A DNA stretch of 56,830 bases from the IMG/VR virus record IMGVR_UViG_3300025327_000035, positions 1-56,830 of that record. One strand, given 5' to 3'. The translations under genes and the position numbers were made by a program. Below, piece after piece: positions 17,179-47,907 of this stretch (positions are counted from its first letter, which is position 1; the number at the start of each line of letters is the position of its first letter). The stretch comes from a virus. The notes under the pieces were generated by a model. It was not told the DNA's origin. It was given only the letters and a program-made list of their open reading frames with translations, and did no database searches.

Positions 17179-17377
17179 ATTTCGCGCTTTCGAGCAAAAA
17201 AACTCAACGCGCTATGTCGTCCATCTATTCAGCGGCCCGGAGCATTTCAAGACCTGGTGCCAGGCGCATTGGCCACAGCACATGGTCGCCGCCAGCGCCG
17301 TTCGCGGCGTATGCGAGCGCTATCCGGTAGACCATCGCTTCGAGAATGAGCAAGAAATCATGGAGGTGCAGACGTGA
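17168..17377 (+). CDS. small early protein, unknown
   Basis: 69 residues; starts at one of two adjacent ATGs (17165 or 17168) overlapping the upstream gene. Contains YVVHLFSGPEHFKTWCQAHWPQH. A similar phrase (ILSHIFESCDEFQKWAKTH type) occurs in the gene at 18129, so the two short proteins may be distant paralogues. The stop overlaps the next GTG start. Confidence 0.5.
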   Translation: MADEFRAFEQKNSTRYVVHLFSGPEHFKTWCQAHWPQHMVAASAVRGVCERYPVDHRFENEQEIMEVQT

Positions 17378-18132
17378 ACGACGAAAAGGCGATGGTTCAG
17401 CTTCAGGCCGCCACGGTCGCGGCGCTTCATCGCATCGCGACCGCGCTCGAGGCCATCGCGCTGAGTAAAGCGCCCGCCCCGAATTTCGTGAGGCCTCTCG
17501 GCGAATACGCTGAATTCGATTTTGATTCGATCGGCGCGAAAGTCGCCGCACGCGATCGGCACGGACCGACCACGCTGGAGTGGGGCGGCTATCAATGGAC
17601 GCGCCGTTCGCCGTCCAACAAGTTCGGATCGGCCATCTGGTTCTCGCGCCCGATTGGCAAGGCCGAGGATGGCAGTGTGCGCTATGCGCGCCTGATCACG
17701 TTCCGCGAGCCGAGCGAGGCTGAGCCTCTGCCTGAGAAGGTGGCCGAGAAAGTGAGAAACGGCGAATCGGCTGGCATCGGCAGGCAAGCTGCGACTCCCG
17801 GGCCCGAGCAGACACATCCAGCCGAAGAGACACAGGCTCACGCGCCGATCAACGCCGATGTGGCCCAAGCGAAGGCCAAGCTGCAGACCACGCCGGCCGC
17901 AAGCGATAACCGCAAGCTTGCGCGTATCATATCTGGTGCCTGGTTCGAGCGCGCGAAGAAGCTCGCGGCCCGGGTCTCATATTATCAGAAAGATGGCCAA
18001 CCCGACCTGTACCACCTGGCCGGCTCTGCATTGAAATGCGGATACCCGGAAATCACGGACGACAATCTTGCGGATGTGCTGCGCGCTCTGGAGCAGCACG
18101 CAATCGAGCAAACGGTCGAAGTGCCGGCATGA
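17374..18132 (+). CDS. early protein with conserved aromatic core, unknown
   Basis: 252 residues, GTG start with GGAGGTGCAGAC just upstream. Residues 1-35 form a helix. Residues about 65-110 form a compact aromatic-rich core (LEWGGYQWTRRSP, GSAIWFSRP, YARLITFRE). Residues 115-180 are a disordered, Pro/Glu/Ala-rich linker. The C-terminal 60 residues are helical (AWFERAKKLAARVSYYQ). The arrangement of small core, linker and C-terminal domain could suit a DNA-binding or recombination accessory protein, but no family is recognised. Confidence 0.5.
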   Translation: MNDEKAMVQLQAATVAALHRIATALEAIALSKAPAPNFVRPLGEYAEFDFDSIGAKVAARDRHGPTTLEWGGYQWTRRSPSNKFGSAIWFSRPIGKAEDGSVRYARLITFREPSEAEPLPEKVAEKVRNGESAGIGRQAATPGPEQTHPAEETQAHAPINADVAQAKAKLQTTPAASDNRKLARIISGAWFERAKKLAARVSYYQKDGQPDLYHLAGSALKCGYPEITDDNLADVLRALEQHAIEQTVEVPA

Positions 18133-19318: not shown

Positions 19319-19666
19319 ATGAGCCACAGACACGATCTGACAAAGCGCGAGCGCCAGGCTGCTCGCCTGGTCGCGGCCGGCCTGACCAATCGAGAGATCG
19401 CCGAAAGACTTGGCGTCGAAACCGCGACGGCAAAGACGCATGTGAGCCAGGTCTTGCGCAAGCTGGGCGTGGAGAGCCGGGAAGATGTGCGCGAGCTGCC
19501 GGAGCCGAGCAACGGGCAACATTCTGCGTTTTCAAATGATGACGTGATCGAGATTTTATGGAGCATCCATGCGCTGATGCTGCGCAGGGGCAGCCCGGAG
19601 CTGGCGAGGATCGTCAACCGGGCCTTGCTCCATATCCGCCTGCACCGGAATGGGTACGAGCGATGA
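19319..19666 (+). CDS. LuxR/GerE-type HTH regulator
   Basis: 115 residues. Residues 6-50 are a LuxR C-terminal type HTH (LTKRERQAARLVAAGLTNRE, IAERLGVETATAKTHVSQVL). No receiver or ligand domain precedes it. The second half is a helical segment (DDVIEILWSIHALMLRR). Likely binds phage or host DNA as a small stand-alone regulator, possibly timing early or late genes. The ATG at 19319 was chosen because the HTH begins right after it and the upstream hairpin makes longer forms unlikely. Confidence 0.7.
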   Translation: MSHRHDLTKRERQAARLVAAGLTNREIAERLGVETATAKTHVSQVLRKLGVESREDVRELPEPSNGQHSAFSNDDVIEILWSIHALMLRRGSPELARIVNRALLHIRLHRNGYER

Positions 19667-20106
19667 AGGCAAGCAGCATCTTGACCATCTGCGCCGGGGG
19701 CGGATTCCGTTCCCGGATCATGGCCGTGCTGCTCGCGCAGCGAACGGGCCTGCGCACGGCCTACGCCGGCACGACGACGGACTGGCAGGGGCGTGTGAAC
19801 CCGCACGCCACGGCGGTCTTGGAGCATGCCGGCATCTATGATCGTCCGCTCATCTCTCACCAGGTTCGGGCCGATGAGATCACCGCCGCCGGCATCGTGA
19901 TCTGCGCCGAGCGCCGGCATCGCGAGCAGTTGTGTGAGATGTATCCCGAGGCAGCGGAGAAGATGTTCACATTGGCGGAATTGGCCGGCGTCGAGGACGT
20001 CGCCGATCCGACGCCGATCGCGCACCTGGGGCACCAGCTGACGCTCGACGAGCTGATGCCGACGTATCAGGAGATTCGTGCGGCAGTGGAGCGGATTGCG
20101 CTATGA
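19663..20106 (+). CDS. low-molecular-weight protein-tyrosine-phosphatase-like protein
   Basis: 147 residues, ATGA overlap with the HTH gene. The N-terminus has a strand then the P-loop C(x)5R(S): Cys10, Arg16 in ILTICAGGGFRSRIMAVLLA, matching the CTGNICRS loop of LMW phosphatases and arsenate reductases. Later, the segment AGIVICAERRHREQLCEMYP matches the family strand and helix, and the DPTP motif (near residue 115) corresponds to the loop with the general-acid Asp. It likely hydrolyses phosphate from protein, nucleotide or sugar phosphoesters. Length is normal. Its host target is unknown. Confidence 0.7.
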   Translation: MKASSILTICAGGGFRSRIMAVLLAQRTGLRTAYAGTTTDWQGRVNPHATAVLEHAGIYDRPLISHQVRADEITAAGIVICAERRHREQLCEMYPEAAEKMFTLAELAGVEDVADPTPIAHLGHQLTLDELMPTYQEIRAAVERIAL

Positions 20107-21137
20107 ACTTCCACGAAGTATCAAACTTATTCCCATTGATGTCGGACGAAGAGCTAGACGAGCTTGCAGACGACATCCAGGAAAATGGCCTCAAGGAGGC
20201 TATCTGTATTCACGACGGCAAGATCATTGATGGCCGCAATCGGTACCTGGCGTGCGAGCGCGCAGGCGTGGAGCCGCACTATCAGGAATGGGATGGCCAA
20301 GGCTCGCTGGTGTCGTTCGTCGTTTCGCTGAACCTCAAACGGCGCCATTTGAGTGAGAGCCAGCGCGCAATGGTCGCGGGGAAGTTGGCGAATATGCGTT
20401 CGGGTTCACGGACCGATCTTGTGAGAAATGGTGCGGAACCTCCCGCCAATTGGCGGGAGGTTAGTCAGACCGAAGCTGCAACCTTGCTTAATGTCGGCGA
20501 GCGCAGCGTGCAGCGCGCCAAGACGGTCATCGATCGCGGTGTACCCGAGCTTCAACAGGCCGTCGAGCACGGAGAGGTGTCTGTATTAGCCGCGTCCGAA
20601 ATCGCCCGCGCGCCACAGGAGAAGCAGCGCGAGCGCCTCAACGTGCACTTCTCAAGCAGCAGCGATGACCATAATACGCCGAGACATATACTCGACATGG
20701 TGATGGCTGTGATGGGCGAGATCGACCTCGACCCATGCAGCAACAGCAAGGAATCACCGAACGTCCCGGCCAAATACCATTACACAAAAAGCGACGATGG
20801 ATTAAGCAAAAAGTGGTTTGGCCGGGTCTATATGAATCCCCCTTACGGCGATGAAATCCCGAAATGGGTAGGCAAGCTGGTCGATACCTTCGAGTCAGGT
20901 GAAGTCAAGGAGGCCATCGCATTACTCCCGGCCAGGACGGACACCGCCTGGTTTAACCAGGTATGCAGCTACACTATTTGTTTTGTGCGAGGCCGGCTCA
21001 AATTCGGAGATGCGAATAACTCGGCCCCGTTCCCGTCCGCAGTTGTCTACCTCGGCTCTCGCTCGAAGCGCTTCATAAAAGCCTTTTCTGAGATTGGGCC
21101 GGTATTCCAAAGGGTCGATCGAGATGTACAAATTTGA
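20103..21137 (+). CDS. ParB-like nuclease domain fused to Dam-type DNA adenine methylase
   Basis: 344 residues. Residues 1-100 are a ParB/Srx-like domain (ENGLKEAICIHDGKIIDGRN, then RYLACERAGV and NLKRRHLSESQRA). An HTH-like linker follows (VSQTEAATLLNVGERSVQRAK). Residues 190-340 match the phage N6-adenine methylase family: NTPRHILDM, IDLDPCSN, YHYTKSDDGLSKKW, then motif IV NPPYG. The protein would methylate adenine in specific sites, perhaps to shield phage DNA from host restriction. ParB-methylase fusions are known in phages. Overlaps the phosphatase gene by 4 bases. Confidence 0.8.
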   Translation: MNFHEVSNLFPLMSDEELDELADDIQENGLKEAICIHDGKIIDGRNRYLACERAGVEPHYQEWDGQGSLVSFVVSLNLKRRHLSESQRAMVAGKLANMRSGSRTDLVRNGAEPPANWREVSQTEAATLLNVGERSVQRAKTVIDRGVPELQQAVEHGEVSVLAASEIARAPQEKQRERLNVHFSSSSDDHNTPRHILDMVMAVMGEIDLDPCSNSKESPNVPAKYHYTKSDDGLSKKWFGRVYMNPPYGDEIPKWVGKLVDTFESGEVKEAIALLPARTDTAWFNQVCSYTICFVRGRLKFGDANNSAPFPSAVVYLGSRSKRFIKAFSEIGPVFQRVDRDVQI

Positions 21138-23705: not shown

Positions 23706-24647
23706 ATGGATCGAGCCACGTCCCCCAACGTGGCCCGCTCCCCCAAGGTGGTGCAGTTGCTGACATACCTGCACCCCCAGTATACACCCGTCTGTCAAGA
23801 CAGGCAATGGGGGTCAATGATGAGTGTCAAGGCAATGACTGCCGTATTCGATGCGCGCAGACTGACTCCAACCGAAAAGCTAGTGCTCTTGGCGCTGGCC
23901 GATCATGCCTCCGAGGATGGATTGAATATCTATCCGAGTGTGGAGACTGTGTGTAAGAAGACCGCATTAGGAGACCGCACAGTAAGGCGCACCATCAAGT
24001 CGCTGAGAAGCGAAAAGAGAGGCATCCTGTTTCTGGTCAGGCGAAAAGGGCGACTGCAAAATGAATACGGCATGAATCTGGCGAAGTTGCAAGACCTGCC
24101 AGACGATCCACTGAGACCTGCCACTGTGGCAGGTCAAGACCTGTCAGACGATCCACTGAGACCTGCCACTGTGGCAGGTAAATCATCAGTAGAATCGTCA
24201 GATCATCCATCAGGAAATCTTAACGCTGCTACGCCGCGTAACGCTCGCCCGCAAGACCTGCACTTTGAAGCTCTCTCGGATGTCTCAAACCTGACACCGC
24301 CCGGGCGGGACTGGAAGCAGCTCACGCGGACCGCCGCCGGCCAGCTCAACCGCTACGCCAAAGAGCTGAGAGACGCCGGCGCGACACCGGAACAGATCGC
24401 GGCCTTTGGGCCGTGGTGGTACGCAAACGATTGGCGCGGCCAGAAGCGACAGCCGCCGAAGCCGGCGGACGTAGCCAGAGAGTGGCCGCGCTACAGGAAC
24501 GGAGATCGAACGAATGGAACACATCAGCAAAGCACTGGCCCGTTTGCAGGACTCGATCCCGCCGAGCGCGAACGGCTCCAGGCGCTCGCCGACAAGATCA
24601 ACGCTCGACGAGCGGCGAAGCGCGCAGCGCAGCGCGGCGCTGCGTGA
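23706..24647 (+). CDS. replication initiator-like protein (lambda O-like, wHTH)
   Basis: 313 residues from 23706, but the conserved part begins with MSVKAMTAVF, so ATG 23817 or 23820 (preceded by GGGGG) is a likely start. Residues 45-130 are a winged HTH (RLTPTEKLVLLALADHASED, CKKTALGDRTVRRTIKSL) as in phage initiators. A linker encoded by two 45-base repeats follows (QDLPDDPLRPATVAG twice). The C-terminal part is helical (RYAKELRDAGATPEQIAAFG). A DnaC-like loader gene overlaps its 3' end by 134 bases, as in lambda O-P order. It probably binds the repeats in its own gene to start replication. Confidence 0.65.
   Translation: MDRATSPNVARSPKVVQLLTYLHPQYTPVCQDRQWGSMMSVKAMTAVFDARRLTPTEKLVLLALADHASEDGLNIYPSVETVCKKTALGDRTVRRTIKSLRSEKRGILFLVRRKGRLQNEYGMNLAKLQDLPDDPLRPATVAGQDLSDDPLRPATVAGKSSVESSDHPSGNLNAATPRNARPQDLHFEALSDVSNLTPPGRDWKQLTRTAAGQLNRYAKELRDAGATPEQIAAFGPWWYANDWRGQKRQPPKPADVAREWPRYRNGDRTNGTHQQSTGPFAGLDPAERERLQALADKINARRAAKRAAQRGAA
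23792..23803. promoter_or_regulatory. small inverted repeat before the probable initiator start
   Basis: CTGTC-AA-GACAG lies 13 bases before the ATG at 23817. It could be a binding site for autoregulation. Short, so weak evidence. Confidence 0.25.
24090..24179. repeat. two 45-bp tandem repeats with 19-bp palindromes, candidate replication origin
   Basis: Units 24090-24134 and 24135-24179 differ at one base. Each ends in ACCTGCCACTGTGGCAGGT, a perfect 9-bp inverted repeat around one base. Extra half-sites (GACCTGCC, GACCTGTC) begin each unit. A stretch richer in A and T follows (24180-24232). This mimics the iterons and AT-rich part of lambda ori, which also lie inside the initiator gene. Confidence 0.65.
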
Positions 24648-26017: not shown

Positions 26018-26983
26018 GTGAAAACGATTTCCGCTGTTTTTCTGCTCGTGGCGCTCGTGCTCACCGGCTGTGTATCGGCCGAAGACCAAATCGCGTTGAT
26101 CAACGCGCGCCGCGCCGATGAGCAGAAACGCATCGATCAAGCGGCATACGAGACCATTGCGCCGGCGCTGGCGCAACTCGACCTGGAGGCGCAGCAGGCT
26201 GAGCAGGACCTGCGCATCGCGCAGGAGCGCCAAGTCAGCGTCGAGGAGCACGAGACACGCATGACGCAGATCTTGGCTGAGCGGACTGCGCTGATCGCAG
26301 GCATCCAAGTCGACGTGGCCGGCAAGGTGAACCGGCTCAACGCTGACTACGAGCGCCAAATCGCGCAGATTCGCCAGCAGACCGACCAGGCGAATGCTGA
26401 AGGATGGGGGAAGGTACTCATCATCGGCGGATTCTCGGCCTCGGTCACGCTGCTAATGCTTGCTCTGGTCTTTCTGATCAAGGCACAGGGCCAGGCCTAT
26501 GTGTTGAGGACTCAGACCGAGGCGCGCAGGCTGCAGGCGGACGCGAATGGCAAGTACGGTCTGGTGGCCGTCGATCAGGATACGTTTTTCGACGCCGACA
26601 TGCGTACCGGTGCGGTGACCTCATTTGATCGTATACCCTGGGCGATCAAGTTGGCGCTGTTGTGGATGGCTTGGAAGAGTGGCAAGCTCGACCTCGATCA
26701 GTGGCGCGAGGTTACACGCACGCGAGCTAGCTTCACCGACGACGATCTTAGCGAAGAAAGCCGGCTGGCCATCTATCAGGCCAATAAGGCGCATCAGATC
26801 GTCGCCGCCGCGACGAAGCCCGGAGCACAAGCGAATGACAAGATCGCTGGCGCGGTCCAGGGCCGTGTCGCCGGCGCGGTGAGCGGCCTGTTCGGCGGCG
26901 CATCGCAGGCGCTGCGCCTGATACGGACCGATGACCCGCTCGAGCTGGAATGGGTGCAGAAACATCTGCGCAATGGAGAATAG
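26018..26983 (+). CDS. lipoprotein-like coiled-coil membrane protein
   Basis: 321 residues from GTG. Residues 1-18 are a lipoprotein signal with lipobox LTGC (Cys18). A coiled coil (residues 22-125) follows, then a strong membrane helix (VLIIGGFSASVTLLMLALVF, residues about 132-156), then a soluble C-terminal part with helices and a Gly/Ala-rich segment (AGAVQGRVAGAVSGLFGGAS). The lipid anchor plus a second helix would place the coiled coil outside and the C-terminus inside the cell. Unusual for a phage; next to another exported coiled-coil protein and two DNA-pump-like ATPases. Could be superinfection exclusion or part of a transport assembly. Confidence 0.6.
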   Translation: MKTISAVFLLVALVLTGCVSAEDQIALINARRADEQKRIDQAAYETIAPALAQLDLEAQQAEQDLRIAQERQVSVEEHETRMTQILAERTALIAGIQVDVAGKVNRLNADYERQIAQIRQQTDQANAEGWGKVLIIGGFSASVTLLMLALVFLIKAQGQAYVLRTQTEARRLQADANGKYGLVAVDQDTFFDADMRTGAVTSFDRIPWAIKLALLWMAWKSGKLDLDQWREVTRTRASFTDDDLSEESRLAIYQANKAHQIVAAATKPGAQANDKIAGAVQGRVAGAVSGLFGGASQALRLIRTDDPLELEWVQKHLRNGE

Positions 26984-26985: not shown

Positions 26986-27198
26986 ATGAACAAAAGCCTC
27001 ACTGTGGTTTCATCTCATGGAACAGAGATTGTTTTTGACTTGGATAATGGCATGAAGTGGTCACGCGGGGAGGATGGTCGCGTCACCATCGAAAACCTCG
27101 ATGGCCTGATTGCCATTGTCCCGATCGACTGGTGCGTGACCGGTATCGAGCGCAGTAAGCTCACCGTAATATCTCCCGATGGCGAGGAGCGGCAATGA
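26986..27198 (+). CDS. small protein, unknown
   Basis: 70 residues from ATG 26986 (GGAGAATAGCC upstream). Beta-rich (KSLTVVSSHGTEIVFDLD, GLIAIVPIDWCVTGIE). Lies between the two membrane protein genes and overlaps the next start (ATGA), so it is probably part of the same unit. Confidence 0.55.
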   Translation: MNKSLTVVSSHGTEIVFDLDNGMKWSRGEDGRVTIENLDGLIAIVPIDWCVTGIERSKLTVISPDGEERQ

Positions 27199-28025
27199 GA
27201 CGATGTTTGATTCTCGTCTTGCTGGGCTTGGCATTCATTGTGCCAGCGGCTCATGCGCAGGATCCAAGCCCGACGCTCGACCCAGTTGCCCAGGCCGAGG
27301 CATTGCAGGCCCAGGCCGATCGCGCGCTGTCCGAGGCGCAGGCCGCGGCCGGCCAGGCGTCTTCGTTGCGCGCCCAGGCAGCGCAGGCGGACGCGCGCGC
27401 GGCCCAGGCGCGTTCCGCTGCGCAATTGGCGCTGGCCGAAGCCGAGCGCTTGCGCCTCGTCGGCGCGCTGAGCGAAGCCCAGGCAGCCATCGAGCAAGCG
27501 CGACTGGCCGAGCAGCAGGCCGCGCAGATCGAGGTCGAGGCTGCTCAGGCCCGGGCGCTGTACGACGAGGCTTACATGCGCGCGCTTGGCGCGATCGCCA
27601 ATGCCGAAGAGGCAATGAAGAGCGCCGGGATCTCCGTGGCAAACGTCGAAGCGCTTCGCGCTCAACTTGCCGCGATGCAGAGCGATCTGCGTGTGGCCGA
27701 AGAGCGATCGCGCATCCTGGCAATCGCCGGCGCCGGCCTGTTCGCGCTGGTGGCACTCAGCGCGCTCGCGGCATTGCAGATCATGCGCCATCAGCGTCGA
27801 ATGATCATCGGAAGCGTCGACGTCGCCGTGCGGTCGCTGTCCCGCGAGCGGGCGCAGGTCACGGAGATGCTTATGCACATGCTGGCCAGCATCGGCGGCA
27901 AAGACGGAGAGACGATCATCGATCACGGCGCGCCGGCGCTCGACGGGGACGATCTATTCATCCGGCGCTACGCCGATGCGCCGGAGCACATCGTCGAAGG
28001 CTTGAAAGATTTATTCCATGACTAA
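27195..28025 (+). CDS. exported coiled-coil membrane protein
   Basis: 276 residues. Signal peptide MRRCLILVLLGLAFIVPAAHA with a cleavage site after AHA. A long Ala/Gln-rich coiled coil (25-170) follows, then a membrane helix (ILAIAGAGLFALVALSALAAL, about 174-195), and a cytosolic C-terminus ending DLFHD. The layout mirrors the lipoprotein at 26018. Overlaps the FtsK-like gene by 8 bases, so the membrane protein and the ATPase are coupled, as for an anchor and motor. Confidence 0.65.
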   Translation: MRRCLILVLLGLAFIVPAAHAQDPSPTLDPVAQAEALQAQADRALSEAQAAAGQASSLRAQAAQADARAAQARSAAQLALAEAERLRLVGALSEAQAAIEQARLAEQQAAQIEVEAAQARALYDEAYMRALGAIANAEEAMKSAGISVANVEALRAQLAAMQSDLRVAEERSRILAIAGAGLFALVALSALAALQIMRHQRRMIIGSVDVAVRSLSRERAQVTEMLMHMLASIGGKDGETIIDHGAPALDGDDLFIRRYADAPEHIVEGLKDLFHD

Positions 28026-29565
28026 CACCGCATTGGCGGTTATATCCGACGCGGACATCTTCAAGGCCGCCAGCCGGCTTGCTCGTGGCCTGGAGAGCCA
28101 TCCCTCGCTGCGCCACGATAACGGCGACGGCTCGATCTTTCGCGTGACGATTATGCAGGATGTCACGCTGATCGCCAATCGCTATCTGCTCGTGCCGGTC
28201 GACCTGAATCGCCTGTGGCACTTCGACAAGAGCCGTCTGCGCCGGCCCCGACTGCTGGAGCACCTGGAGATCGAGGTTGGAATGCCTGTCAGGTATATCG
28301 CATCCGATCGGGGCTTCTTCTATGTACTCGAGTGGAACTCCGGGCGCGGGAATGGCGCGCCGGCCCGGGCCATAGCGCTGCCGGGGATGGTGGCACTGCC
28401 GTCTGTCGAGCGCGATCGGTTCGCGCTGGGCGTTGCCGATCACGGGCCGCTGCTTGCCGAGCGCCGCGAGCTGCGTGGTGTGGTCGTCGGCGGCGGGCCT
28501 CGCACGGGCAAGACGAGCCTGCTGCGCTCGCTGGCTTACCAGGCTGTGAGCAATGGCTGGATATTGTATCTGGCAGATAAGCCGCTCGGAAACACGTTCA
28601 TGCCGGCGCTGTGGTCGCGTGTGCCGAGCGTCGCAGGCATTGCCACGAATGGATCTGAAATCGATGAGCTGCTCACGGACATTGACGATCAGTGCAGCCG
28701 GCGCGCTGCGCTGTTCGCTGAGGCGGCGCGCAATTACATTCCACCCGAAGACCTGGAGCAGTTCAACGAATGGACCGGCTCGCGCTTGCCGCCGATCCTG
28801 TTCGCGGCTGACGAGTTCAATACGTTCAGCCACTACATCTCGATGGAGCGGTTCGCCGACATCGCGCGCCGCAATCAGAAATACGGGTTGATGATTGTCA
28901 TCGCTGCGCACGAGTGGAAGAGCGACGCCATCAGCAAGTCGCTTTCCGAACTTCTGGAGACGCGCATCTGCTTCCACATGGCGAGCCGTGAGGCAATCCG
29001 CGCGGTGATGCCGTTTGTCAGCCCGGCGCAGGTGGCACAGCTCGGCCGTATCGCCGAGCAGGGCAGGGTGGCGATCAATCTGATGGGTCATCACTCGCTG
29101 ATGCAGGCTTACTATCTCGATCCGGAGCGGCTGTCGGCGATGGCCGTGAGCCAGGCCGTCGAGAAGCCGCGTGTGACGCTCACAACGAATGAGCAGGAGA
29201 TCGCCCGCGCGGCGATCGAGGAACTGGACGGTTACTTCTCCATTGAAAAGCTGGCCGCGCTCGGCATCAGCCGGCGCCAGATTGTCAAAGCGTCGAAGGC
29301 GTGGGCAGACCGGGGCTGGCTTGGACCGGTGACGGACAGGGGACGAGCTTTGACAGATCGCTTCGCCGATGATACCGGCCTGGAGCAGGGTAGGCCCCAA
29401 GAGGCCCCAGGGCGATCAGACCGATCAGACGATCAGGGCGATCAGACCGATCAGGCCCCCGAAACATTGGGCTTTGCCGGCAGAGCGACGGAGCGCGACA
29501 TCGCGTTCGCGGAGGGTCTGATCGCCCGCAGAGGGGGTCTGAACGCCGGTCTGACCGGGGTCTGA
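28018..29565 (+). CDS. FtsK/TraB-like DNA-translocating ATPase
   Basis: 515 residues. Walker A GGGPRTGKTS (158-167), Walker B ILFAADEF (260-267), and a later glutamine/arginine region (RRNQKYGLMIVIAAHEW) match the FtsK-SpoIIIE superfamily. Residues about 395-455 look like a winged helix (IEELDGYFSIEKLAALGISR, KAWADRGWLG), as in the DNA-reading gamma domain of FtsK and in TraB. The C-terminal 60 residues are encoded by a repeat array at 29413-29581. No membrane helix is present; the upstream exported protein may anchor it. It would pump double-stranded DNA. Confidence 0.75.
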   Translation: MTNTALAVISDADIFKAASRLARGLESHPSLRHDNGDGSIFRVTIMQDVTLIANRYLLVPVDLNRLWHFDKSRLRRPRLLEHLEIEVGMPVRYIASDRGFFYVLEWNSGRGNGAPARAIALPGMVALPSVERDRFALGVADHGPLLAERRELRGVVVGGGPRTGKTSLLRSLAYQAVSNGWILYLADKPLGNTFMPALWSRVPSVAGIATNGSEIDELLTDIDDQCSRRAALFAEAARNYIPPEDLEQFNEWTGSRLPPILFAADEFNTFSHYISMERFADIARRNQKYGLMIVIAAHEWKSDAISKSLSELLETRICFHMASREAIRAVMPFVSPAQVAQLGRIAEQGRVAINLMGHHSLMQAYYLDPERLSAMAVSQAVEKPRVTLTTNEQEIARAAIEELDGYFSIEKLAALGISRRQIVKASKAWADRGWLGPVTDRGRALTDRFADDTGLEQGRPQEAPGRSDRSDDQGDQTDQAPETLGFAGRATERDIAFAEGLIARRGGLNAGLTGV

Positions 29566-29581
29566 CCGCCCCGATCAGACC
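29413..29581. repeat. ten short repeats CGATCAGACC at the FtsK-like gene 3' end
   Basis: Direct copies start at 29413, 29422, 29430, 29439 and 29448 (period 8-9, overlapping). Inverted copies GGTCTGAYCG or GGTCTGAACG start at 29515, 29536, 29548 and 29559, and a final direct copy lies at 29572-29581. The copies run over the stop codon at 29563-29565 into non-coding DNA, so they are conserved as DNA rather than as protein. Confidence 0.75.
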
Positions 29582-30060: not shown

Positions 30061-30531
30061 ATGCCTGATACGTTTCCGCCCAAATTTGGAGGAAAATTCA
30101 AATTCTATCGCACGCGCGATCTGGCCCGATTTCTGACGAGGCTTCACGAGCGGGAAAGGCTTTCGTGGCGCGACATCGCTCAAGAGAAATTCGGTAATGG
30201 GATACCGCCTGGCACGCTATGCCGAATCGCAAAAGGCGACTATGATCCGAGACACAACAGCATTCGAGAGAAGCTTGGCTTGCCAAAAACGATCAGGCTC
30301 GTGGTGTTGAATGGTCATATCCGCGAAGGCGCGGTTGTTCTGGGTCATTCGCGTCGGTGTGCCTGGCGGCGATGTCGTGTGCACTTCGTCGGCGACGCAA
30401 GCCGGCGATACTGCTCGGATGAATGCGGTCGCCAGGCTCACGCTGATCAGCGGAAGCGATCAGCAAAAGAGCGCCGCGAGCGGGCGCGCCGGCTGGTGGC
30501 TCGCAAGCGGAACGAAAAGCGGAGGAAATGA
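30061..30531 (+). CDS. HTH protein with C-terminal zinc ribbon
   Basis: 156 residues. Residues 20-60 look like an HTH (LARFLTRLHERERLSWRDIA, then IPPGTLCRIAKGDYDP). Residues 98-125 hold CAWRRC and RYCSDECG, a likely zinc ribbon, followed by a highly basic tail. Likely a DNA-binding regulator or accessory protein. It sits between the two ATPase genes and next to the repeat array, so it is a candidate to bind those repeats. Confidence 0.55.
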   Translation: MPDTFPPKFGGKFKFYRTRDLARFLTRLHERERLSWRDIAQEKFGNGIPPGTLCRIAKGDYDPRHNSIREKLGLPKTIRLVVLNGHIREGAVVLGHSRRCAWRRCRVHFVGDASRRYCSDECGRQAHADQRKRSAKERRERARRLVARKRNEKRRK

Positions 30532-30532
30532 C

Positions 30533-32203
30533 ATGCTCAAAATATCCGATCGCCTTTCGCTTCCTGTCGAAGCGATCACCCAAACGTTTGGCATTCTGGC
30601 CGTGCGTGGCGCCGGCAAGTCTAATCTGGCCGCCGTGATGGCTGAGGAGATGTTCGATGCTCGTCTGCCATTCGTGGTCATCGATCCGGTCGGCGCATGG
30701 TGGGGCCTGCGCTCGTCAGGCGATGGCCGTTCTGCCGGCATCCCGGTTCCGATCTTCGGCGGCCGGCATGGGGATGTGCCGCTTGAACGCGCAGGCGGGA
30801 ACCTGATCGCGGATCTCGTCGTCGAGCATCGGCTTAGTTGCGTTCTGGACGTCAGTGAGCTAAGCGAAGGCGACAAGGTGCGTTTCTTGTGCGACTTCGC
30901 CGAGCGTCTCTATCGGCGCAACACAGAGCCGTTACATCTCTTCTTGGAGGAGGCCGACGATTATGCTCCGCAGCGTCCCATGCGCGAGCAGGCGAGACTA
31001 TTACGCGCCTGGGAAAACATCGTGCGCCGTGGCCGGGCGCGCGGCCTGGGCATCACGATGGTCACACAGCGGAGCGCCGCATTAAACAAGAATGTGCTCA
31101 CGCAGATCGAGACGCTATTCGTGCTGCGCACCACGTCACCGCAAGACCGTAAGGCGATTGCGGCTTGGGTTGAATACTACGATCAGAGCCGTGACGTGCT
31201 CGAATCGCTTCCCAGCCTGATGAACGGCGAGGCGTGGGTTTGGTCGCCGTACTTTCTCAAGACGATCAAGCGAGTCCATATTCGCCGCCGTCGCACATTC
31301 GACAGCGCTGCAACGCCGAAGCAGATACGCGGTGGTCGAAAGCCCGCGACGCTGGCGGACGTCGACCTGGCTGCTATCGGCGAACGAATGCAGGATACAA
31401 TCGAGCGCGCGAAGGAAATCGATCCGACGGAGCTTCAAAAGCGCATCGCCGATCTAGAGCGCCGATTACGCGCACAGCCGAAGCCAGAAATTGAGCGCGT
31501 GGTTGATCGAATCGAGATTCCAATTTTCAAGGACAGCGAGGTGGCACGGCTCGAAAAGGCCGTTGCCGGCATCCAGGAATTCGGCGCGCAATTGGTGAAT
31601 GTGGCGCAGGAAATCAGCGGCGCGCTGCGGGCGGTGACGACCAGGCCAATGCCTGCACCTGTGAATCCGGTTTGGGTGCGTCCCGTGGTTTCCCCTGCCC
31701 CACGTGCGGCCAGGACGGAAGCAGCTGAGGCAGATGTCAAGCTGCCAAAGGCGGAACGATCGATCTTATCTGTGCTGGCACAGTATTATCCGCAAGGACG
31801 AAACAAGACGCAGCTCGCGATCCTGGCCGGCTACTCTGTGAAGGGTGGGGGATTCAACAATGCGATCGGCGCGTTGCGCTCCTATGGATTCATTCGCGGT
31901 GGCAAAGAGCACATCGAGATCACAGACGCCGGTCTGTCTGCAATCGGCAGCGATTGGGAGCTACTGCCGACCGGTCGGGTACTGATCGATTATTGGCTGC
32001 GTGAGTTGCCGAAGGCCGAGCGGTCGATCCTGAGTGTGCTGGTGGACGCATATCCGAATGCAGTCGAGAAGACCGCGCTTGCCGAGGCGGCCGGCTATCA
32101 GGTCGGAGGCGGTGGATTCAACAATGCGCTTGGCAAGCTGCGCACGCTCGAGTTGGCGAGAGGACGAAATGAGATCCGGGCGAGTGATGCGCTGTTTGAA
32201 TGA
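30533..32203 (+). CDS. HerA-like hexameric ATPase with tandem C-terminal winged helices
   Basis: 556 residues from ATG 30533 (GGAGGAA upstream); a longer frame opens at 30311 but overlaps the previous gene. Walker A GAGKSN (26-31), Walker B LHLFLEEAD (134-142), then a TMVTQRSAALNKNVLTQI segment and LRTTSPQDR with an arginine finger, match HerA/DUF87 ATPases. A coiled coil follows (280-330). Two similar winged-helix units (LPKAERSILSVLAQYY and LPKAERSILSVLVDAY, about 90 residues apart) end the protein and may bind DNA. It probably moves DNA or another polymer through a ring. Confidence 0.75.
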   Translation: MLKISDRLSLPVEAITQTFGILAVRGAGKSNLAAVMAEEMFDARLPFVVIDPVGAWWGLRSSGDGRSAGIPVPIFGGRHGDVPLERAGGNLIADLVVEHRLSCVLDVSELSEGDKVRFLCDFAERLYRRNTEPLHLFLEEADDYAPQRPMREQARLLRAWENIVRRGRARGLGITMVTQRSAALNKNVLTQIETLFVLRTTSPQDRKAIAAWVEYYDQSRDVLESLPSLMNGEAWVWSPYFLKTIKRVHIRRRRTFDSAATPKQIRGGRKPATLADVDLAAIGERMQDTIERAKEIDPTELQKRIADLERRLRAQPKPEIERVVDRIEIPIFKDSEVARLEKAVAGIQEFGAQLVNVAQEISGALRAVTTRPMPAPVNPVWVRPVVSPAPRAARTEAAEADVKLPKAERSILSVLAQYYPQGRNKTQLAILAGYSVKGGGFNNAIGALRSYGFIRGGKEHIEITDAGLSAIGSDWELLPTGRVLIDYWLRELPKAERSILSVLVDAYPNAVEKTALAEAAGYQVGGGGFNNALGKLRTLELARGRNEIRASDALFE

Positions 32204-35991: not shown

Positions 35992-36774
35992 ATGCCGAGA
36001 CCAGGAGTTACGCAACTATTGCACGAGCTGAATGACGAGGCGCGTATTCTGGTCGCCAACTCGCCGGACATCATGATCCGGCTCAACCTGGACGGCACGA
36101 TCGGCTGGGTCAACCCGGCATGGACGCATCAAATCGGTCACCCGTCTGCGGAGGTGAAAGACAAGCCGTTCACGGAATTCGTGCATCGCGACGACGTTGG
36201 CCTGCTGTCGAGCGCATTCGCGCATCTGCGCACGGAAGACCTGACGCGCCGCACACGGTTCAGAATGCTCACGAAAGCCGGCGGCGAGCTGTGGGTTGGG
36301 GCACGAGGCTCGTTCTTCAACGGCCTGGGACGGGCCTACCTGATCATCCGGGATGTAAGCCTGTCGATGGCTTACGAGCGTGAGTTGGAGCGTGAGCGTG
36401 GACGGTTCGAGACGTTGCTGCGATATTCGATGATTGGCGTCTCGACGCTCGACGCGACGGGAATCATCACCTACCAGTCGCCGACCTCGTTCGACATTCT
36501 GGGGTACGAGCCGGAAGAGCTGATCGGAAAAAACGCCTTCGAATTCACGCATCCGGAAGAGCGCATGGTGCAAGGGAAGATTTTCGCGAGCTTACTGGCG
36601 GACCCGGGTGGCCGGCGGCGCTCGATAGCACAGTGGCGGCATCGGTCGGGCGTGTACATTCCTCTCGTTGTGCATGCGTGGAATCTGTTGAACGAAGAGG
36701 CCGTACAGGCAATCGTGATCAACTTCTGGCGCAGCGACCGTCCGATCGGGTTCGGGGGCGGAGGCAATGAGTGA
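35992..36774 (+). CDS. double-PAS sensor protein without output domain
   Basis: 260 residues. PAS 1 (residues about 12-125): SPDIMIRLNLDGTIGWVNPA, then a helical region, FVHRDDVGLLSSAF, RFRMLTKAGGELWVGARGSF and AYLIIRDVS. A linker helix (ERELERERGRFETLLRYS) leads to PAS 2 (about 140-250): IGVSTLDATGIITYQSPTS, ILGYEPEELIGKNAFEFTHP, then IPLVVHAW and AIVINFWRSDR. No kinase, cyclase or HTH part follows. It may sense a small ligand, redox state or light by a bound cofactor and bind another protein. Placed between holin and endolysin genes, it could tune lysis. Confidence 0.75.
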   Translation: MPRPGVTQLLHELNDEARILVANSPDIMIRLNLDGTIGWVNPAWTHQIGHPSAEVKDKPFTEFVHRDDVGLLSSAFAHLRTEDLTRRTRFRMLTKAGGELWVGARGSFFNGLGRAYLIIRDVSLSMAYERELERERGRFETLLRYSMIGVSTLDATGIITYQSPTSFDILGYEPEELIGKNAFEFTHPEERMVQGKIFASLLADPGGRRRSIAQWRHRSGVYIPLVVHAWNLLNEEAVQAIVINFWRSDRPIGFGGGGNE

Positions 36775-37225
36775 TGCCACGCCACCGCCGTTTGATCTGT
36801 CCGCTATCCGATATATTGCCGACGAGGTCGTTCGGGTTCGCAGCGAACTCAACGGACTACGAGATACGATCGGTGCGAGGCTGCTGCAGCAAGACGAGGC
36901 GGTAAGGCACGTCCTCTCTATCTCCGGCGATATGGAGCGCGTGCATCGCCTGATGGAAACGCACGCGAAGCTCTGGAACGAGCTAAGCGACGAGGTGCGT
37001 ACCTGGACGGCGCTGCGCGGAAGGGACATCGAAGTGCTGAGGCGAGACTTGGAGAAAACGGAGAGCGACGCGAAAGAGCATCGCGCCATGCACGAAAGAG
37101 GCGCAGGCGAAATGGTTGCGGTGACGACAGCGCGCATCGACAGCCGCACGCGCGTCTTGCTGGCGCTCATCGCGCTGGGCCAATTCGTGCTGGGCGTGCT
37201 GATCGGTCGAGGCACGGCGCCATGA
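36767..37225 (+). CDS. coiled-coil, tail-anchored membrane protein of lysis cassette
   Basis: 152 residues. A long charged coiled coil (residues 20-120) ends in a membrane helix (VLLALIALGQFVLGVLIG, 129-146) near the C-terminus. GGAGG precedes ATG 36767; the start overlaps the PAS gene by 8 bases. The layout resembles XhlA-type haemolysin or spanin-like lysis helpers. It might also partner the PAS protein. Confidence 0.6.
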   Translation: MSDATPPPFDLSAIRYIADEVVRVRSELNGLRDTIGARLLQQDEAVRHVLSISGDMERVHRLMETHAKLWNELSDEVRTWTALRGRDIEVLRRDLEKTESDAKEHRAMHERGAGEMVAVTTARIDSRTRVLLALIALGQFVLGVLIGRGTAP

Positions 37226-37881
37226 CGTACCGGAATCTGGCGATCTCCATAGAGCGCAACGTCGTCGGCGGTTATCGCGCGACGGATAACCGCAGTCAGG
37301 TAATGGGCTTCGGCTCATCGGAGGCCGAGGCGCTTCTCGAATACTATGCCGCAGCCGTGCAGGCCAACGTATTCGACGCCGACGATCTCACTCCCCTGCT
37401 CCAACGCGTTAAGCTCCTGTGGCCCACGGACTTCAAGGTCTACACGCAGAGATTCGGCGAACGACCGGAGTTCTACGCCAAATTCAGGCTTCCCGGTCAC
37501 GAGGGCGTGGACATCCGTGCTCCGTTCGGGGCGCCAGTGCGGGCCTGCGCGCGGGGTGTGGTGACGATGGCCGGCTGGCATCCTAAGCGCGGCCGCGATC
37601 ATCCATATGGTTTCCAGGTGCGCATTCGCCACGTTTTCGCCGACGGTGAGTACGAGACGATCTATGCGCATCTACGGGAAGACTCGGCCGTCGTCAAGGT
37701 CGGCGACGAGGTGCACGCCGGCATTCAGATCGCCAGCGCAGACAGCACCGGCAATTCGAGCGCGGCGCATCTCCATCTGTCGCTCAAGAAGATCGGCGCG
37801 AAGAACGGGGGCTACGGCGAGCTGATCGACCCGGCACCGTTTTTCGTGGATGGGCCTTTCACGGGCCAGGAGACGGGGTGA
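37222..37881 (+). CDS. M23-family endolysin
   Basis: 219 residues. The N-terminal 80 residues are an unrecognised domain. Residues 85-210 are an M23 metallopeptidase: H93-EGV-D97 in LPGHEGVDIRAPFGAPV, YAHL (His150) and AHLHLSL (His183, His185), the zinc-binding and catalytic set of lysostaphin-type enzymes. It should cut peptide cross-links of peptidoglycan at lysis. No signal peptide, so holin-dependent. The start overlaps the preceding gene (ATGA). Confidence 0.85.
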   Translation: MTYRNLAISIERNVVGGYRATDNRSQVMGFGSSEAEALLEYYAAAVQANVFDADDLTPLLQRVKLLWPTDFKVYTQRFGERPEFYAKFRLPGHEGVDIRAPFGAPVRACARGVVTMAGWHPKRGRDHPYGFQVRIRHVFADGEYETIYAHLREDSAVVKVGDEVHAGIQIASADSTGNSSAAHLHLSLKKIGAKNGGYGELIDPAPFFVDGPFTGQETG

Positions 37882-38090
37882 GCCGGGATGTGCGAAACGG
37901 TGAGTTGGACGCGCAGATCCTCGAAGCGATGTACACCGGGGATGCGCGGCGCATCATTACCCTGCTCGGCGAGAAATATGGTCTGCGAATGAGCGAGGAC
38001 GAGATCCGGGCGGGGATAGAGCACTTGCTGATGATCGTAAATCTGCCGCTACGAAAGCGCGCGGACGAGCAGAACGGGGATACTCCATGA
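37878..38090 (+). CDS. small protein, unknown
   Basis: 70 residues, GTG start overlapping the endolysin stop. Helical (GELDAQILEAMYTGDARRII, EDEIRAGIEHLLMIVNLPL). The stop overlaps the next start. Function unknown. Confidence 0.5.
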   Translation: MSRDVRNGELDAQILEAMYTGDARRIITLLGEKYGLRMSEDEIRAGIEHLLMIVNLPLRKRADEQNGDTP

Positions 38091-38410
38091 CAGACCTCAT
38101 TGCACAGGCAATGAACCTGAGAGAGAGATTGGCGGCGCACGTTTCCCGGCATGCAGACGGCGAGGACGATGCGCTCGAATGCGTCAGGCTGGCGGATCAA
38201 CTACTGCATGCCATCCGGGACATCCGCGTGAACGCAAGCGCGGACGCTGCGCTCCAGGAAGCCAACGAGATCGCCGTAATCATTGGTCAGTATCCGCGCA
38301 TGATGAACTCGGACGAGTACCACGGCAAGCTTGCCGAGCATGGGCGCCGGCTGCGCGCGTTGCTGAATGCTGCCGGCTATCCGGCGCCGGGCAGCGTGCC
38401 GCCGGAATAA
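38087..38410 (+). CDS. small helical protein, unknown
   Basis: 107 residues, ATGA overlap upstream. Helical and acidic (LIAQAMNLRERLAAHVSRHA, ALQEANEIAVIIGQ). Function unknown. Lies between lysis and terminase genes. Confidence 0.5.
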   Translation: MTDLIAQAMNLRERLAAHVSRHADGEDDALECVRLADQLLHAIRDIRVNASADAALQEANEIAVIIGQYPRMMNSDEYHGKLAEHGRRLRALLNAAGYPAPGSVPPE

Positions 38411-38416
38411 GGAGGC

Positions 38417-38650
38417 ATGAAGATGTTTCATTGGAATCACGGTTGGTTCTTTAGGCGATTGCCGAATGGATCGGTTCACATTCAAAAAAGGAAGACGGCT
38501 CACGACAATGCCGAGGTGGAGGTAGAGGCGACAATTCCCGCTGCGGAATGGGCGAGCGTTGTCGCGGCAGTGTCGCAATGGGGTGAATCGGGTCCAACCT
38601 GGCAGATTGCGTTGGCGTTCCACGGCGAGATACACCACGATCCGGTCTGA
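38417..38650 (+). CDS. small protein, unknown
   Basis: 77 residues, AAGGAGG upstream. Beta-hairpin-rich start (FHWNHGWFFRRLPNGSVHIQ) and helix (PAAEWASVVAAVSQWGE). Function unknown. Confidence 0.5.
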   Translation: MKMFHWNHGWFFRRLPNGSVHIQKRKTAHDNAEVEVEATIPAAEWASVVAAVSQWGESGPTWQIALAFHGEIHHDPV

Positions 38651-38654
38651 GGGG

Positions 38655-38852
38655 ATGCGGATGCTCAACGATTTCGAGATAGCCGGGCTATACGGGCCTC
38701 GGCGCGGCGGGAACGTGAGGCGTGGCGAGATGGCTGGCCGACTTGCTCGCGCGCTTCGTGACTTGGCTGCTTGGCCGTATGCGGCCGACGCCTTGATGTG
38801 GCTGGCGTACCTGACAGTCGCAGCGGTGATTGTGGCGGCGGTTTTCTCATGA
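38655..38852 (+). CDS. small membrane protein, unknown
   Basis: 65 residues from ATG 38655. A basic N-terminal half and a single C-terminal membrane helix (ALMWLAYLTVAAVIVAAVF). Possibly a lysis or exclusion accessory. Overlaps the next ORF by 4 bases. Confidence 0.45.
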   Translation: MRMLNDFEIAGLYGPRRGGNVRRGEMAGRLARALRDLAAWPYAADALMWLAYLTVAAVIVAAVFS

Positions 38853-38953
38853 TACGACAGGGACTCATTGACGGCGTGCTCATGCTCGCGCTTGCCCTCG
38901 TGGTGGTGGCGCTGTTTGCCGTGAACCTCGCCGCGCAGGGGCTTTGCCGATGA
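38849..38953 (+). CDS. 34-residue membrane peptide
   Basis: One membrane helix (GVLMLALALVVVALFAVNLA) flanked by basic residues. ATGA overlaps on both sides (38849 and 38950) support real translation. Function unknown. Confidence 0.4.
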   Translation: MIRQGLIDGVLMLALALVVVALFAVNLAAQGLCR

Positions 38954-39435
38954 CCAGGGATAGCCGGCGTAAAAAGCAAGCACGCGCCAGACGCATGCCA
39001 AAGCCTGAGAGCGAGCGCAACAAGTTCAAGCCCGAGCGGGCCGCGGCAATCCTCGTCGAGGCGGCATTCATGAGCGATGAGAAAGCCGCGCGTAAGTGGC
39101 GCGTCAGCGTTCGCTCTATTACTAACTGGCGTAATCGCCTCGACGACGACGCAGAGTTTGCAGCCATTTTCCACCATAAAAAAGACATCTTCGAGGCGAA
39201 CTGGGCGCTTGAGCTATTGCCGGCAATTTATTCGGCGATCGACTATCTTAAGCGTGCCGCACAGGCAAAGCGATATAGCCATCAGATGATTCACTCCATC
39301 GCCGGCGCGCTCAAGATTTTAAGCGAGGTGATGGTCACGAAAGAGTATCTGGATGCTCGGTCTGCTAGACAGCGTGGAGAAGAGGACCAAGCGCTTGGAG
39401 CGCTGGAAACCCACCGCCACGCATCGAACGAATAA
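38950..39435 (+). CDS. terminase small subunit
   Basis: 161 residues from ATG 38950. A basic start, then a HTH (AAILVEAAFMSDEKAARKWR, VSVRSITNWRNRLDDD), then a helical oligomerisation region. It likely recognises the packaging site and forms a ring. It directly precedes and overlaps the large subunit gene by 83 bases, as small terminases do. Confidence 0.7.
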   Translation: MTRDSRRKKQARARRMPKPESERNKFKPERAAAILVEAAFMSDEKAARKWRVSVRSITNWRNRLDDDAEFAAIFHHKKDIFEANWALELLPAIYSAIDYLKRAAQAKRYSHQMIHSIAGALKILSEVMVTKEYLDARSARQRGEEDQALGALETHRHASNE

Positions 39436-41068
39436 AATCCAATCGGGCATCGGCCTTCTCGACTGGACGCGCCGCTATCGTCCCCTGCTCATCCCGGGCC
39501 GGCCATTCGACATCGAGCGGCATGCCTACCTGGTTGACATCTACAACTATACCGGCCACTCGATGGTCATAGACAAGGCCGGCCAGATGGGCGCCAGCGA
39601 GTACCTGATCGGCTACGCCTTCCACGCCGCCGACCAGCGCGACGCGACCGTGCTGTACGTGTTCCCGACCGACACGCACGTGAGCGACTTCTCCAGCGCA
39701 CGCATCGGCCCGGCCATCGAGGCCAGTGAGTACCTCGACAGCATCGTGATCGAAGGCTCGGGCGACAGGCGCGGCGCCGACCGCGTGACGCTCAAGCGCG
39801 TGCGGAATCGGTTCATCTATTTACGCGGCGGGAAGGTCGATCTGGACGGCCGGGCGGCGCAGCTCAAGGCCGTCGACGCCGATGTGCTCATTCTCGACGA
39901 GGTGGACGAGATGGATCCGCGTGCGCCGGCCATCGCGGTCAAGCGCTTGGGCCATAGCCTGATCGCCGAGGAGCGCAAAGTCAGCACGCCGACCTACGCC
40001 GGCATGGGCATCCACGCCGAGTGGCTGGAGAGCGACCAGCGCGAATGGCATGTGGCATGCGGGCGATGCGGGGAGTGGCAGCCGTTGACCGTCGACCAGG
40101 TCGTCACGGGATGGGATGCGCTGGGCCGGCCAGTCGCCTGGCACGGGCAAGACGAAGTCCGGGCCTGGGCCGCCTGCCGGAAGTGCGGGCGCGAGATCGA
40201 CCGGCTCGGGCCTGGGCGCTGGATTGCCACGTATCCCGAACGCGTGGTAGCTGGCTTCCATCTCACGAAGCTGTTCAGCCCGACAGTCGAGCTGGTCGCG
40301 ATCGTCCAGGCGCTCAATACCGTCGATGAGACGAAACGCAAGGAAGCATTCAACCAGGACTTGGCGCTGCCGTACACGCCGCGCGGCGGCCAGCTCACGG
40401 ACGAGGTGCTCGACCGGTGCCGGCGGGATTACGCACATGGGCCGGTCAAAGGCGAGCCTCGCGCGGTTGCGGGAATCGATGTGGGGCGCGTGCTGCATGT
40501 GGTCATTCGCGGACCGGCCCACCCTGAGACGGGCGAGCGCCCGCAGCGCTTCGCCGGCGAGGTGGACTGGGATGAGGCGGGCCGGCTGATGCAGGTCTTC
40601 GATGTGCGCAAGGCAGTGATGGATGCTCTGCCGGAGACGGCGAAGGCGCGTGAATTCCAGCAGGATTTTCGGGGACGGGTGTGGCTGACCTACTATGGCC
40701 AGCAGCGCGTTGGCTCGAAGAAAGCTGGAGCCATCCAGTGGAATCACGATGAAGGCGTGGTTGACCTGGATCGGACGCGCACGCTCGATGCGTTGTTTGC
40801 CGCGCTGTCTGACGAAAAGCTCACGCTGCCGGCCAACGCGCGGGCTATCCCGGACTACTACGCGCACATGAAAGCGCCGATCCGGGTGCTGGAGGATGGC
40901 CCGGGCGGGGAGAAAGTCGCGCGGTATGTCGAGACCACAGACGACCACTTCGCGCACGCGGAGAACTACTGTATGGTTGCAGGCGAGACGACCGAGCCGG
41001 CTTCGGCAACAGCGGTCAGGCGCGACGTTCACGCCGCGCGCCCGCGCAGTAGCTGGCAGAGAGGGTAA
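39353..41068 (+). CDS. terL: terminase large subunit (GpA-like)
   Basis: 571 residues. ATPase: a Walker A-like segment DKAGQMGASEY (74-84) lacks the usual GKS lysine position but resembles that of GpA-type terminases. Walker B is VLILDEVDE (178-186). A zinc-binding pair follows (CGRC, 236-239; CRKC, 275-278), typical of the lambda gpA family. The nuclease begins AGIDVGR (Asp376). It cuts and pumps phage DNA into the prohead. Start at 39353 overlaps the small subunit gene. Confidence 0.85.
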   Translation: MLGLLDSVEKRTKRLERWKPTATHRTNKIQSGIGLLDWTRRYRPLLIPGRPFDIERHAYLVDIYNYTGHSMVIDKAGQMGASEYLIGYAFHAADQRDATVLYVFPTDTHVSDFSSARIGPAIEASEYLDSIVIEGSGDRRGADRVTLKRVRNRFIYLRGGKVDLDGRAAQLKAVDADVLILDEVDEMDPRAPAIAVKRLGHSLIAEERKVSTPTYAGMGIHAEWLESDQREWHVACGRCGEWQPLTVDQVVTGWDALGRPVAWHGQDEVRAWAACRKCGREIDRLGPGRWIATYPERVVAGFHLTKLFSPTVELVAIVQALNTVDETKRKEAFNQDLALPYTPRGGQLTDEVLDRCRRDYAHGPVKGEPRAVAGIDVGRVLHVVIRGPAHPETGERPQRFAGEVDWDEAGRLMQVFDVRKAVMDALPETAKAREFQQDFRGRVWLTYYGQQRVGSKKAGAIQWNHDEGVVDLDRTRTLDALFAALSDEKLTLPANARAIPDYYAHMKAPIRVLEDGPGGEKVARYVETTDDHFAHAENYCMVAGETTEPASATAVRRDVHAARPRSSWQRG

Positions 41069-41070
41069 AC

Positions 41071-43770: not shown

Positions 43771-43773
43771 AAC

Positions 43774-44370: not shown

Positions 44371-44406
44371 ATAACGTTTTCATGGTATGTAGTAAGGGAG
44401 ATCAAG

Positions 44407-44701: not shown

Positions 44702-44710
44702 GGAGGGAAT

Positions 44711-45311: not shown

Positions 45312-45337
45312 CGTACATCTGACACGGTAGGTGCATA

Positions 45338-45891: not shown

Positions 45892-45898
45892 AGAATAG

Positions 45899-47906: not shown

Positions 47907-47907
47907 C

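What the first reader, a model, noticed from the sequence alone, without database searches (positions are those of the whole stretch)
29413..29581. Ten short repeats at the 3' end of an FtsK-like gene: a possible clt-like DNA transfer or loading site
Seen: CGATCAGACC occurs six times in direct and four times in inverted orientation within 169 bp, overlapping the last 50 codons, the stop codon and non-coding DNA. Known: Streptomyces conjugative plasmids use an FtsK-like TraB whose C-terminal winged helix binds 8-bp repeats (clt), located close to traB. Inferred: this phage FtsK-like protein, which has a winged helix at residues 395-455, may read these repeats to load on and pump its own DNA. 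A partition site, origin or operator are alternatives.
Basis: partly seen in the sequence, partly recalled or inferred. Interest (0 to 1): 0.85.

Follow-up and report, generated by a model that had tools for sequence, protein, structure and literature searches.

The report
Docking repeats for phage DNA pump
A phage that probably infects Chloroflexota bacteria carries, at the very end of its gene for an FtsK-like DNA-pumping motor, a cluster of short DNA repeats that most likely serve as the docking site for that same motor; distant relatives of the motor carry matching clusters at the same place, as some Streptomyces conjugative plasmids do.

Summary
The array is real. It is the strongest repeat cluster at any gene end in this 56.7-kb, effectively complete phage genome. 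Host: probably Chloroflexota, from terminase relatives. The FtsK-like protein ends in a winged helix (AlphaFold pLDDT 86; FtsK-gamma-like) and follows genes for two membrane-anchor proteins. FtsK-like genes with a C-terminal helix-turn-helix in other Chloroflexota phages and mobile elements mostly carry short-repeat arrays at the same place, with element-specific sequences. Eight whose motors form one clade with the window's share one unit, CGnyCARRCCG, at ~9-bp spacing, despite ~25% protein identity to it and different downstream genes. A motif learned without the window picks this array as the best site in its genome. Best reading: a self-encoded recognition/loading site (clt-like) for the FtsK-like motor. 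Binding is untested, and whether the pump serves cell-to-cell transfer or segregation is open. A conserved RNA hairpin and a ParA/ParM centromere are disfavoured. It is a new variant of the Streptomyces TraB-clt arrangement, outside Actinobacteria and in phages.

The parts
29413..29457 (+). left half of the array: five direct units CGATCAGACC / ..GACG / ..GGGC / ..GACC / ..GGCC at 29413, 29422, 29430, 29439, 29448
   Evidence: leave-one-out motif from other elements scores this region highest in the genome
29515..29568 (-). right half of the array: four inverted units (CGATCAGACC, CGTTCAGACC, CGGTCAGACC, CGGTCAGACC on the - strand) at 29515, 29536, 29548, 29559; the last contains the ftsK stop codon
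29572..29581 (+). sixth direct unit, in the short gap after the stop codon, next to a possible ribosome-binding site AGGGG
28018..29565 (+). FtsK-like motor, 515 aa: Walker A GGPRTGKT, Walker B LFAADEF, no transmembrane helix; C-terminal winged helix at about residues 390-455, then a low-complexity tail encoded by the array
   Evidence: phrog_1358 E 1.3e-13; weak PDB matches to FtsK/SpoIIIE-type 4n1a and TcpA 6o1x; winged helix pLDDT 86.4, pTM 0.75, Foldseek matches to RuvB and FtsK-gamma winged helices
27195..28025 (+). probable membrane anchor, overlapping the ftsK start: signal peptide, Ala-rich coiled coil, TM helix 174-192, cytoplasmic tail
   Evidence: hydropathy only; same order upstream of relatives, fused into the motor in L060, L059, L161
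26018..26983 (+). second probable anchor: lipoprotein signal (LTGC), charged helical stretch, TM helix 133-151
   Evidence: hydropathy only
30311..32203 (+). HerA/DUF87-like ATPase downstream (real start probably near 30530)
24090..24179 (+). a different repeat cluster (two 45-bp units with CCTGCCACTGTGGCAGG palindromes) inside the O-like initiator gene 23706-24647: the better origin candidate

Best explanation
The array is the cognate recognition and loading site of the FtsK-like motor whose gene it closes. The C-terminal winged helix reads a ~10-bp unit (family consensus CGnyCARRCCG). Many units about one helical turn apart gather several subunits and nucleate the motor ring on this DNA molecule only; membrane-anchor proteins encoded just upstream tie the motor to the membrane, and ATP-driven translocation moves the phage or element DNA. 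Shown here by sequence: array, motor, winged helix, anchors, conservation of position, and co-inheritance of repeat sequence with the motor clade. Inferred: binding, loading, pumping. The purpose (spread between cells of a filament, TraB-like, or segregation of an extrachromosomal prophage) is undecided.
For: Arrays at the 3' end of FtsK-like genes with a C-terminal HTH/winged helix in other Chloroflexota phages and mobile elements; gene-end enrichment against 690 other gene ends: class I p=0.002, class II p=8e-5, window rank 1/58. CARRCC within 150 bp of the stop: window 8 (expected 0.9, P 6e-6), L172 8 (P 7e-5), L171 6 (P 2e-3), L163 5 (P 2e-3), L170 5 (P 3e-3); 0-2 at class II and HTH-less genes. 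The eight sharing this unit form one clade (94/93; 1 change against 6.8 when shuffled) with shared unit and ~9-bp spacing. Leave-one-out motif: no other 170-bp stretch scores as high in 4 of 7 contigs, window included (94.7 bits, next 48.1). In the closest pair, L158/L169, most differences inside the array exchange A and G at the R positions or restore a unit. Winged helix, FtsK-gamma-like. Anchors upstream or fused. Precedent: pWTY27 clt covers 16 bp of the traA end plus 159 bp, four TGACACC repeats and inverted repeats, footprinted by TraA (PMC3583192).
Against: No binding or transfer data. The generic array score is not significant for several members (L135, L169, L171, L172, L157), whose units are degenerate, and L059 (G010) has an HTH but no visible array. 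The three scored genes of the HTH-less class also lie above the controls (p=0.02), mainly through L166, which is doubtful as an FtsK. Column-shuffled motifs do as well in 5-18 of 200 cases, so the leave-one-out result is strong only in combination. Unit lists and the clade label were drawn up after looking at the sequences; the motif noted beforehand (CARAC) gives only P 0.01-0.25 in the four later-fetched clade members.
Confidence: 0.7

Rival explanations
1. Centromere (parS/parC-like site) for a ParA or ParM partition system of an extrachromosomal prophage.
For: In several mobile elements the array lies between the FtsK-like gene and a ParA (L211) or actin-like ParM gene (L200, L205) close downstream, and ParA or ParM genes lie a little further away in L201, L206, L210 and L214; ParA/ParM also occur in phage contigs G035, G008 and G006. 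parC of ParM systems is a repeat array upstream of parM (established knowledge).
Against: The window has neither ParA (PF13614) nor actin-like (PF17989) genes, and neither was found in G005, G019, G021, G027, G028 and G030, which carry arrays (some are fragments). The shared unit CARRCC occurs with ParA, ParM or neither downstream, but follows the FtsK clade.
Confidence: 0.12
2. Replication origin (iterons).
For: Direct repeats with ~9-bp spacing inside the replication region, 5 kb from an O-like initiator and a DnaC-like loader.
Against: A separate repeat cluster lies inside the O-like initiator gene itself (24090-24179), as in lambda-type origins, and G005 and G007 have such clusters in short wHTH initiator-like genes too; GC skew does not change sign at 29.4 kb.
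Confidence: 0.05
3. RNA element: terminator, attenuator or protective hairpin at the end of the ftsK message.
For: The window array folds far better than shuffles (-102.7 against -73 kcal/mol, z -6.6).
Against: Relatives with the same units in direct orientation show no such structure (z +1.6, -1.9, +0.3, -2.2, -0.1); no T-run follows the last stem in the window.
Confidence: 0.05
4. Operator by which the motor or another phage protein regulates the downstream genes or its own operon; loading is not its role.
For: The last unit abuts the ribosome-binding site of the next ORF (29594); winged helices are commonly regulators; Streptomyces Kor repressors bind near tra genes (established knowledge).
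Against: The position at the 3' end of the motor gene is kept although the downstream genes differ; the number of units (4-10) is high for an operator.
Confidence: 0.08

Closest known systems
TraB-clt of Streptomyces conjugative plasmids (pSVH1, pJV1, pWTY27)
   Same: FtsK-type motor with C-terminal winged helix; plasmid-specific 7-9-bp repeats next to, or overlapping the end of, the tra gene; repeat sequence differs between plasmids (PMC3583192)
   Different: Carriers here are phages and mobile elements of Chloroflexota; the motor does not pass the NCBIfam TraB model; membrane anchor encoded by separate genes; motor domain nearest to EccC/EssC-type FtsK models
FtsK-gamma / KOPS and SpoIIIE / SRS
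   Same: winged helix at the C-terminus of a DNA translocase reading short asymmetric sites; fold match to 2ve8, 2j5o, 2ve9
   Different: KOPS are scattered and polarised over the chromosome; here one dense array, both orientations in the window
TcpA (pCW3) and ICEBs1 ConQ FtsK-like coupling proteins
   Same: FtsK/HerA-fold motors of mobile elements; weak sequence match to TcpA 6o1x
   Different: those work with a relaxase and a type IV secretion channel (from general knowledge), not sought systematically here, and I know of no repeat arrays at their gene ends
Samaravirus small terminase with FtsK-gamma domain (PMC8190038)
   Same: phage protein with a KOPS-type winged helix
   Different: there the domain is fused to TerS; here it is on its own motor, and the phage has a standard large terminase (39353-41068)

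Membership tests
FtsK-HerA superfamily motors | Walker A/B motor core matching FtsK/SpoIIIE models | tested here: met
   window phrog_1358 E 1.3e-13; no Pfam FtsK_SpoIIIE hit for the window itself, but relatives E 3e-7 to 2e-34
Streptomyces TraB (NCBIfam NF041214) | score above the curated cut-off (800 bits) | tested here: not met
   window no hit; relatives at most 15-28 bits
clt locus | several 7-9-bp direct repeats, with inverted repeats, adjoining or overlapping the tra gene | tested here: met
   precedent PMC3583192
clt locus | bound by the Tra motor's C-terminal domain | not testable with these tools
   only co-inheritance of motif and motor clade
clt locus | required in cis for DNA transfer | not testable with these tools
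   needs a transfer assay
FtsK-gamma domain | winged-helix fold of the gamma type | tested here: inconclusive
   winged helix pLDDT 86; FtsK-gamma among the Foldseek hits, prob 0.97, but E about 0.1 and RuvB ranks higher; hhalign against Chloroflexota FtsK-gamma 59%, E 9e-5; no Pfam FtsK_gamma hit
KOPS | dispersed, strand-biased over the genome | tested here: not met
   CARACC 7 in the 300-bp array region, 0.2 per 300 bp elsewhere
ParABS / ParMRC centromere | ParA or ParM encoded in the same genome | tested here: not met
   no PF13614 or PF17989 match in the window
iteron origin | repeats next to or inside the initiator gene | tested here: not met
   initiator-gene cluster is at 24090-24179, 5 kb away, with a different sequence

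The most novel reading that the evidence does not exclude
Chloroflexota phages and mobile elements carry an independent, TraB-like double-stranded DNA pump with its own docking site, letting a phage genome move from cell to cell along a filament without a virion; the DNA-reading domain and its repeats are exchanged together like a lock and key.
Probability: 0.2. Interest if true: 0.9.

Novelty: new variant of a known kind. Interest (0 to 1): 0.66.

Why it matters
It extends a motor-plus-docking-site arrangement known from Streptomyces plasmids to phages and mobile elements of a deeply branching, often filamentous phylum with few genetic tools, and gives a natural series of paired winged helices and repeat sequences. 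That series makes the recognition code of FtsK-type loading domains testable, and raises the question why a virion-forming phage needs a membrane-tied DNA pump.

Tried and rejected
Direct searches with the window's FtsK protein found no relatives in IMG/VR, INPHARED, PLSDB or GTDB genomes; relatives came only through the terminase and a PHROG profile. The HerA neighbour led to MW202482, whose 'chromosome segregation protein' is SbcC/SMC-like by its sequence, not FtsK. A first k-mer score was swamped by GC-rich words and replaced. A structure from the single C-terminal sequence was poor and its fold matches meaningless. Copies at 11 and 56700 are one and the same place, because the contig ends repeat. 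An RNA-hairpin reading was rejected as not conserved. Viral scans with L135, L163 and L172 gave no new relatives.

Full report
OBSERVATION. Exact CGATCAGACC occurs four times in the whole genome, all in the array: 3 direct and 1 inverted. With one mismatch there are 17 hits in the window against 6.2 +/- 2.4 in shuffles, none of which reaches 17, and 9 of the 17 lie in these 169 bp. The count of six direct and four inverted needs copies with up to two mismatches. Spacing is 9, 8, 9, 9 bp on the left and 21, 12, 11 on the right. The array starts after the codons of the winged helix, covers the low-complexity tail and the stop codon, and ends next to a possible ribosome-binding site of the next small ORF.

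CONTEXT. The record is a virus contig whose first and last 141 bp are the same but for one base, so the map is effectively closed; the two apparent outliers at its ends are one site. It encodes large terminase, portal and head proteins, an O-like initiator and DnaC-like loader, then two membrane-anchor candidates (26018-26983, 27195-28025), the FtsK-like motor (28018-29565), the array, and a HerA-like ATPase. Eight of nine terminase relatives in GTDB genomes are in Chloroflexota MAGs, one in Planctomycetota, so the host is most likely a Chloroflexota bacterium.

THE MOTOR. It matches phrog_1358 (FtsK/SpoIIIE-like, 1.3e-13). Its C-terminal 80 residues, modelled with one relative, give a confident winged helix (H-E-H-H-E-E-H, pLDDT 86.4). 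Foldseek finds the winged helices of RuvB and, with probability 0.97, FtsK-gamma including the KOPS-bound form (E-values are only 0.02-0.15, so this supports a winged helix rather than a particular family). A profile comparison with the gamma domains of Chloroflexota FtsK gives 59%, E 9e-5.

RELATIVES. The protein itself has no close relative in any collection searched. Terminase relatives searched with the PHROG profile gave FtsK-like genes in ten other phage contigs, and the MAGs added mobile elements. At the 3' ends of those with a C-terminal HTH, short repeats recur, different in each: GCTACC/GGTAGC (G006, G027), a GCTACTACTACTGCTAAC inverted pair (G008), CGACACACG (G019), GATRTCAC (G021), CGACAGAC (G030), GGGTGCAG (G028), TGACAAAC (G053), GGTAAC (G054), GGCGGAY (G249). 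These lists were read by eye. G010 has an HTH and no visible array, and in G005 the repeats lie upstream of the HTH codons. FtsK-like genes without the HTH (L137, L151, L156, L162) show none by eye; that contrast rests on few cases and is descriptive. L166, scored in that class, has a high generic score but is not clearly an FtsK.

STATISTICS. A score for local enrichment of any 7-mer at gene ends, relative to the rest of the contig, puts the window's ftsK end first of 58, and class I (p=0.0024) and class II (p=8e-5) above 690 other gene ends. Several members with degenerate units do not stand out by this score. A specific test does better: CARRCC within 150 bp of the stop is enriched in the window (8 against 0.9), L163, L170, L171 and L172, and at background in class II and HTH-less genes. 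The eight proteins assigned to this unit form one clade (94/93); the assignment was made partly from the wHTH alignment, so this is support, not proof. A motif built from the other six elements and run over the window's genome finds the array as the single best stretch (94.7 bits, next 48.1); the same holds for L163, L170 and L172, and the other three lie within the top 1.2%. Column-shuffled motifs match this in 2.5-9% of trials per element, which combined over seven elements is unlikely by chance. In the close pair L158/L169 the differences in the array mostly exchange A and G at the R positions or restore a unit, while changing the encoded tail residues: this suggests selection on the DNA rather than on the tail peptide.

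MECHANISM. Motor, winged helix, array next to its own gene, and membrane anchors just upstream (fused with the motor in G008, G010 and L161) together suggest a membrane-tied DNA pump that loads on the DNA molecule carrying its gene. This is how TraB and clt are understood in Streptomyces; in pWTY27 the clt covers 16 bp inside the end of traA and 159 bp beyond, with four TGACACC repeats and inverted repeats footprinted by TraA (PMC3583192). Binding and pumping are inferred. The neighbours in some elements (ParA, ParM, tyrosine recombinase, DnaA_N) make segregation of an extrachromosomal element a serious alternative purpose, compatible with the same loading site.

RIVALS. A ParA/ParM centromere is unlikely in the window, which has neither gene, and the unit follows the motor, not the downstream gene. 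An origin is better placed in the O-like gene. RNA structure is strong in the window (z -6.6) but absent in relatives with the same units. An operator role cannot be excluded.

MEMBERSHIP. It works like TraB-clt, but the motor is not a member of the TraB model family, and the functional tests that define clt cannot be run here. Hence: new variant of a known kind. In five literature searches I found no description of such arrays in Chloroflexota phages; the library lacks most subscription papers.

Noticed in passing
window 24090-24179: Two 45-bp tandem units with CCTGCCACTGTGGCAGG palindromes inside the O-like initiator gene: probable lambda-type origin. G005 (about 25848) and G007 (about 511) have direct/inverted arrays inside similar short wHTH genes.
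   Followed up: partly
window 1-141 and 56690-56830: 141-bp terminal repeat with one mismatch: the contig closes to a circle or terminally redundant genome of about 56.7 kb.
   Followed up: yes
window 49818-51962: Protein built of 14-residue repeats (42-bp DNA repeats, about SDNQPAYLKGRDTA); function unknown.
   Followed up: no
window 20103-21137: ParB-like N-terminal domain fused to a Dam-type adenine methyltransferase.
   Followed up: no
window 17374-18132: DdrB-like protein (PF12747, E 3e-10), a family best known from Deinococcus as a single-strand binding protein.
   Followed up: no
G006 about 23966 (L043): A second direct/inverted array (ACTGTCTCAC) right after an AAA replication-helicase-like gene: the strongest gene-end array in that phage, stronger than the one at its ftsK.
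   Followed up: partly
L199, L200, L201, L211: Recurrent cassette in Chloroflexota MAGs in varying combinations: DnaA_N protein, lipoprotein/TM anchor, FtsK-wHTH with array, ParA or actin-like ParM, tyrosine recombinase; looks like a plasmid or integrative element family that I could not name.
   Followed up: partly
L008/L038 (IMGVR_UViG_3300002407_000043): 17.4-kb contig with window proteins 35992-53391 at about 100% identity: the same phage in another record.
   Followed up: partly
window 35992-36774 and 19558-20106: Phage-borne PAS-domain protein and low-molecular-weight protein-tyrosine phosphatase.
   Followed up: no
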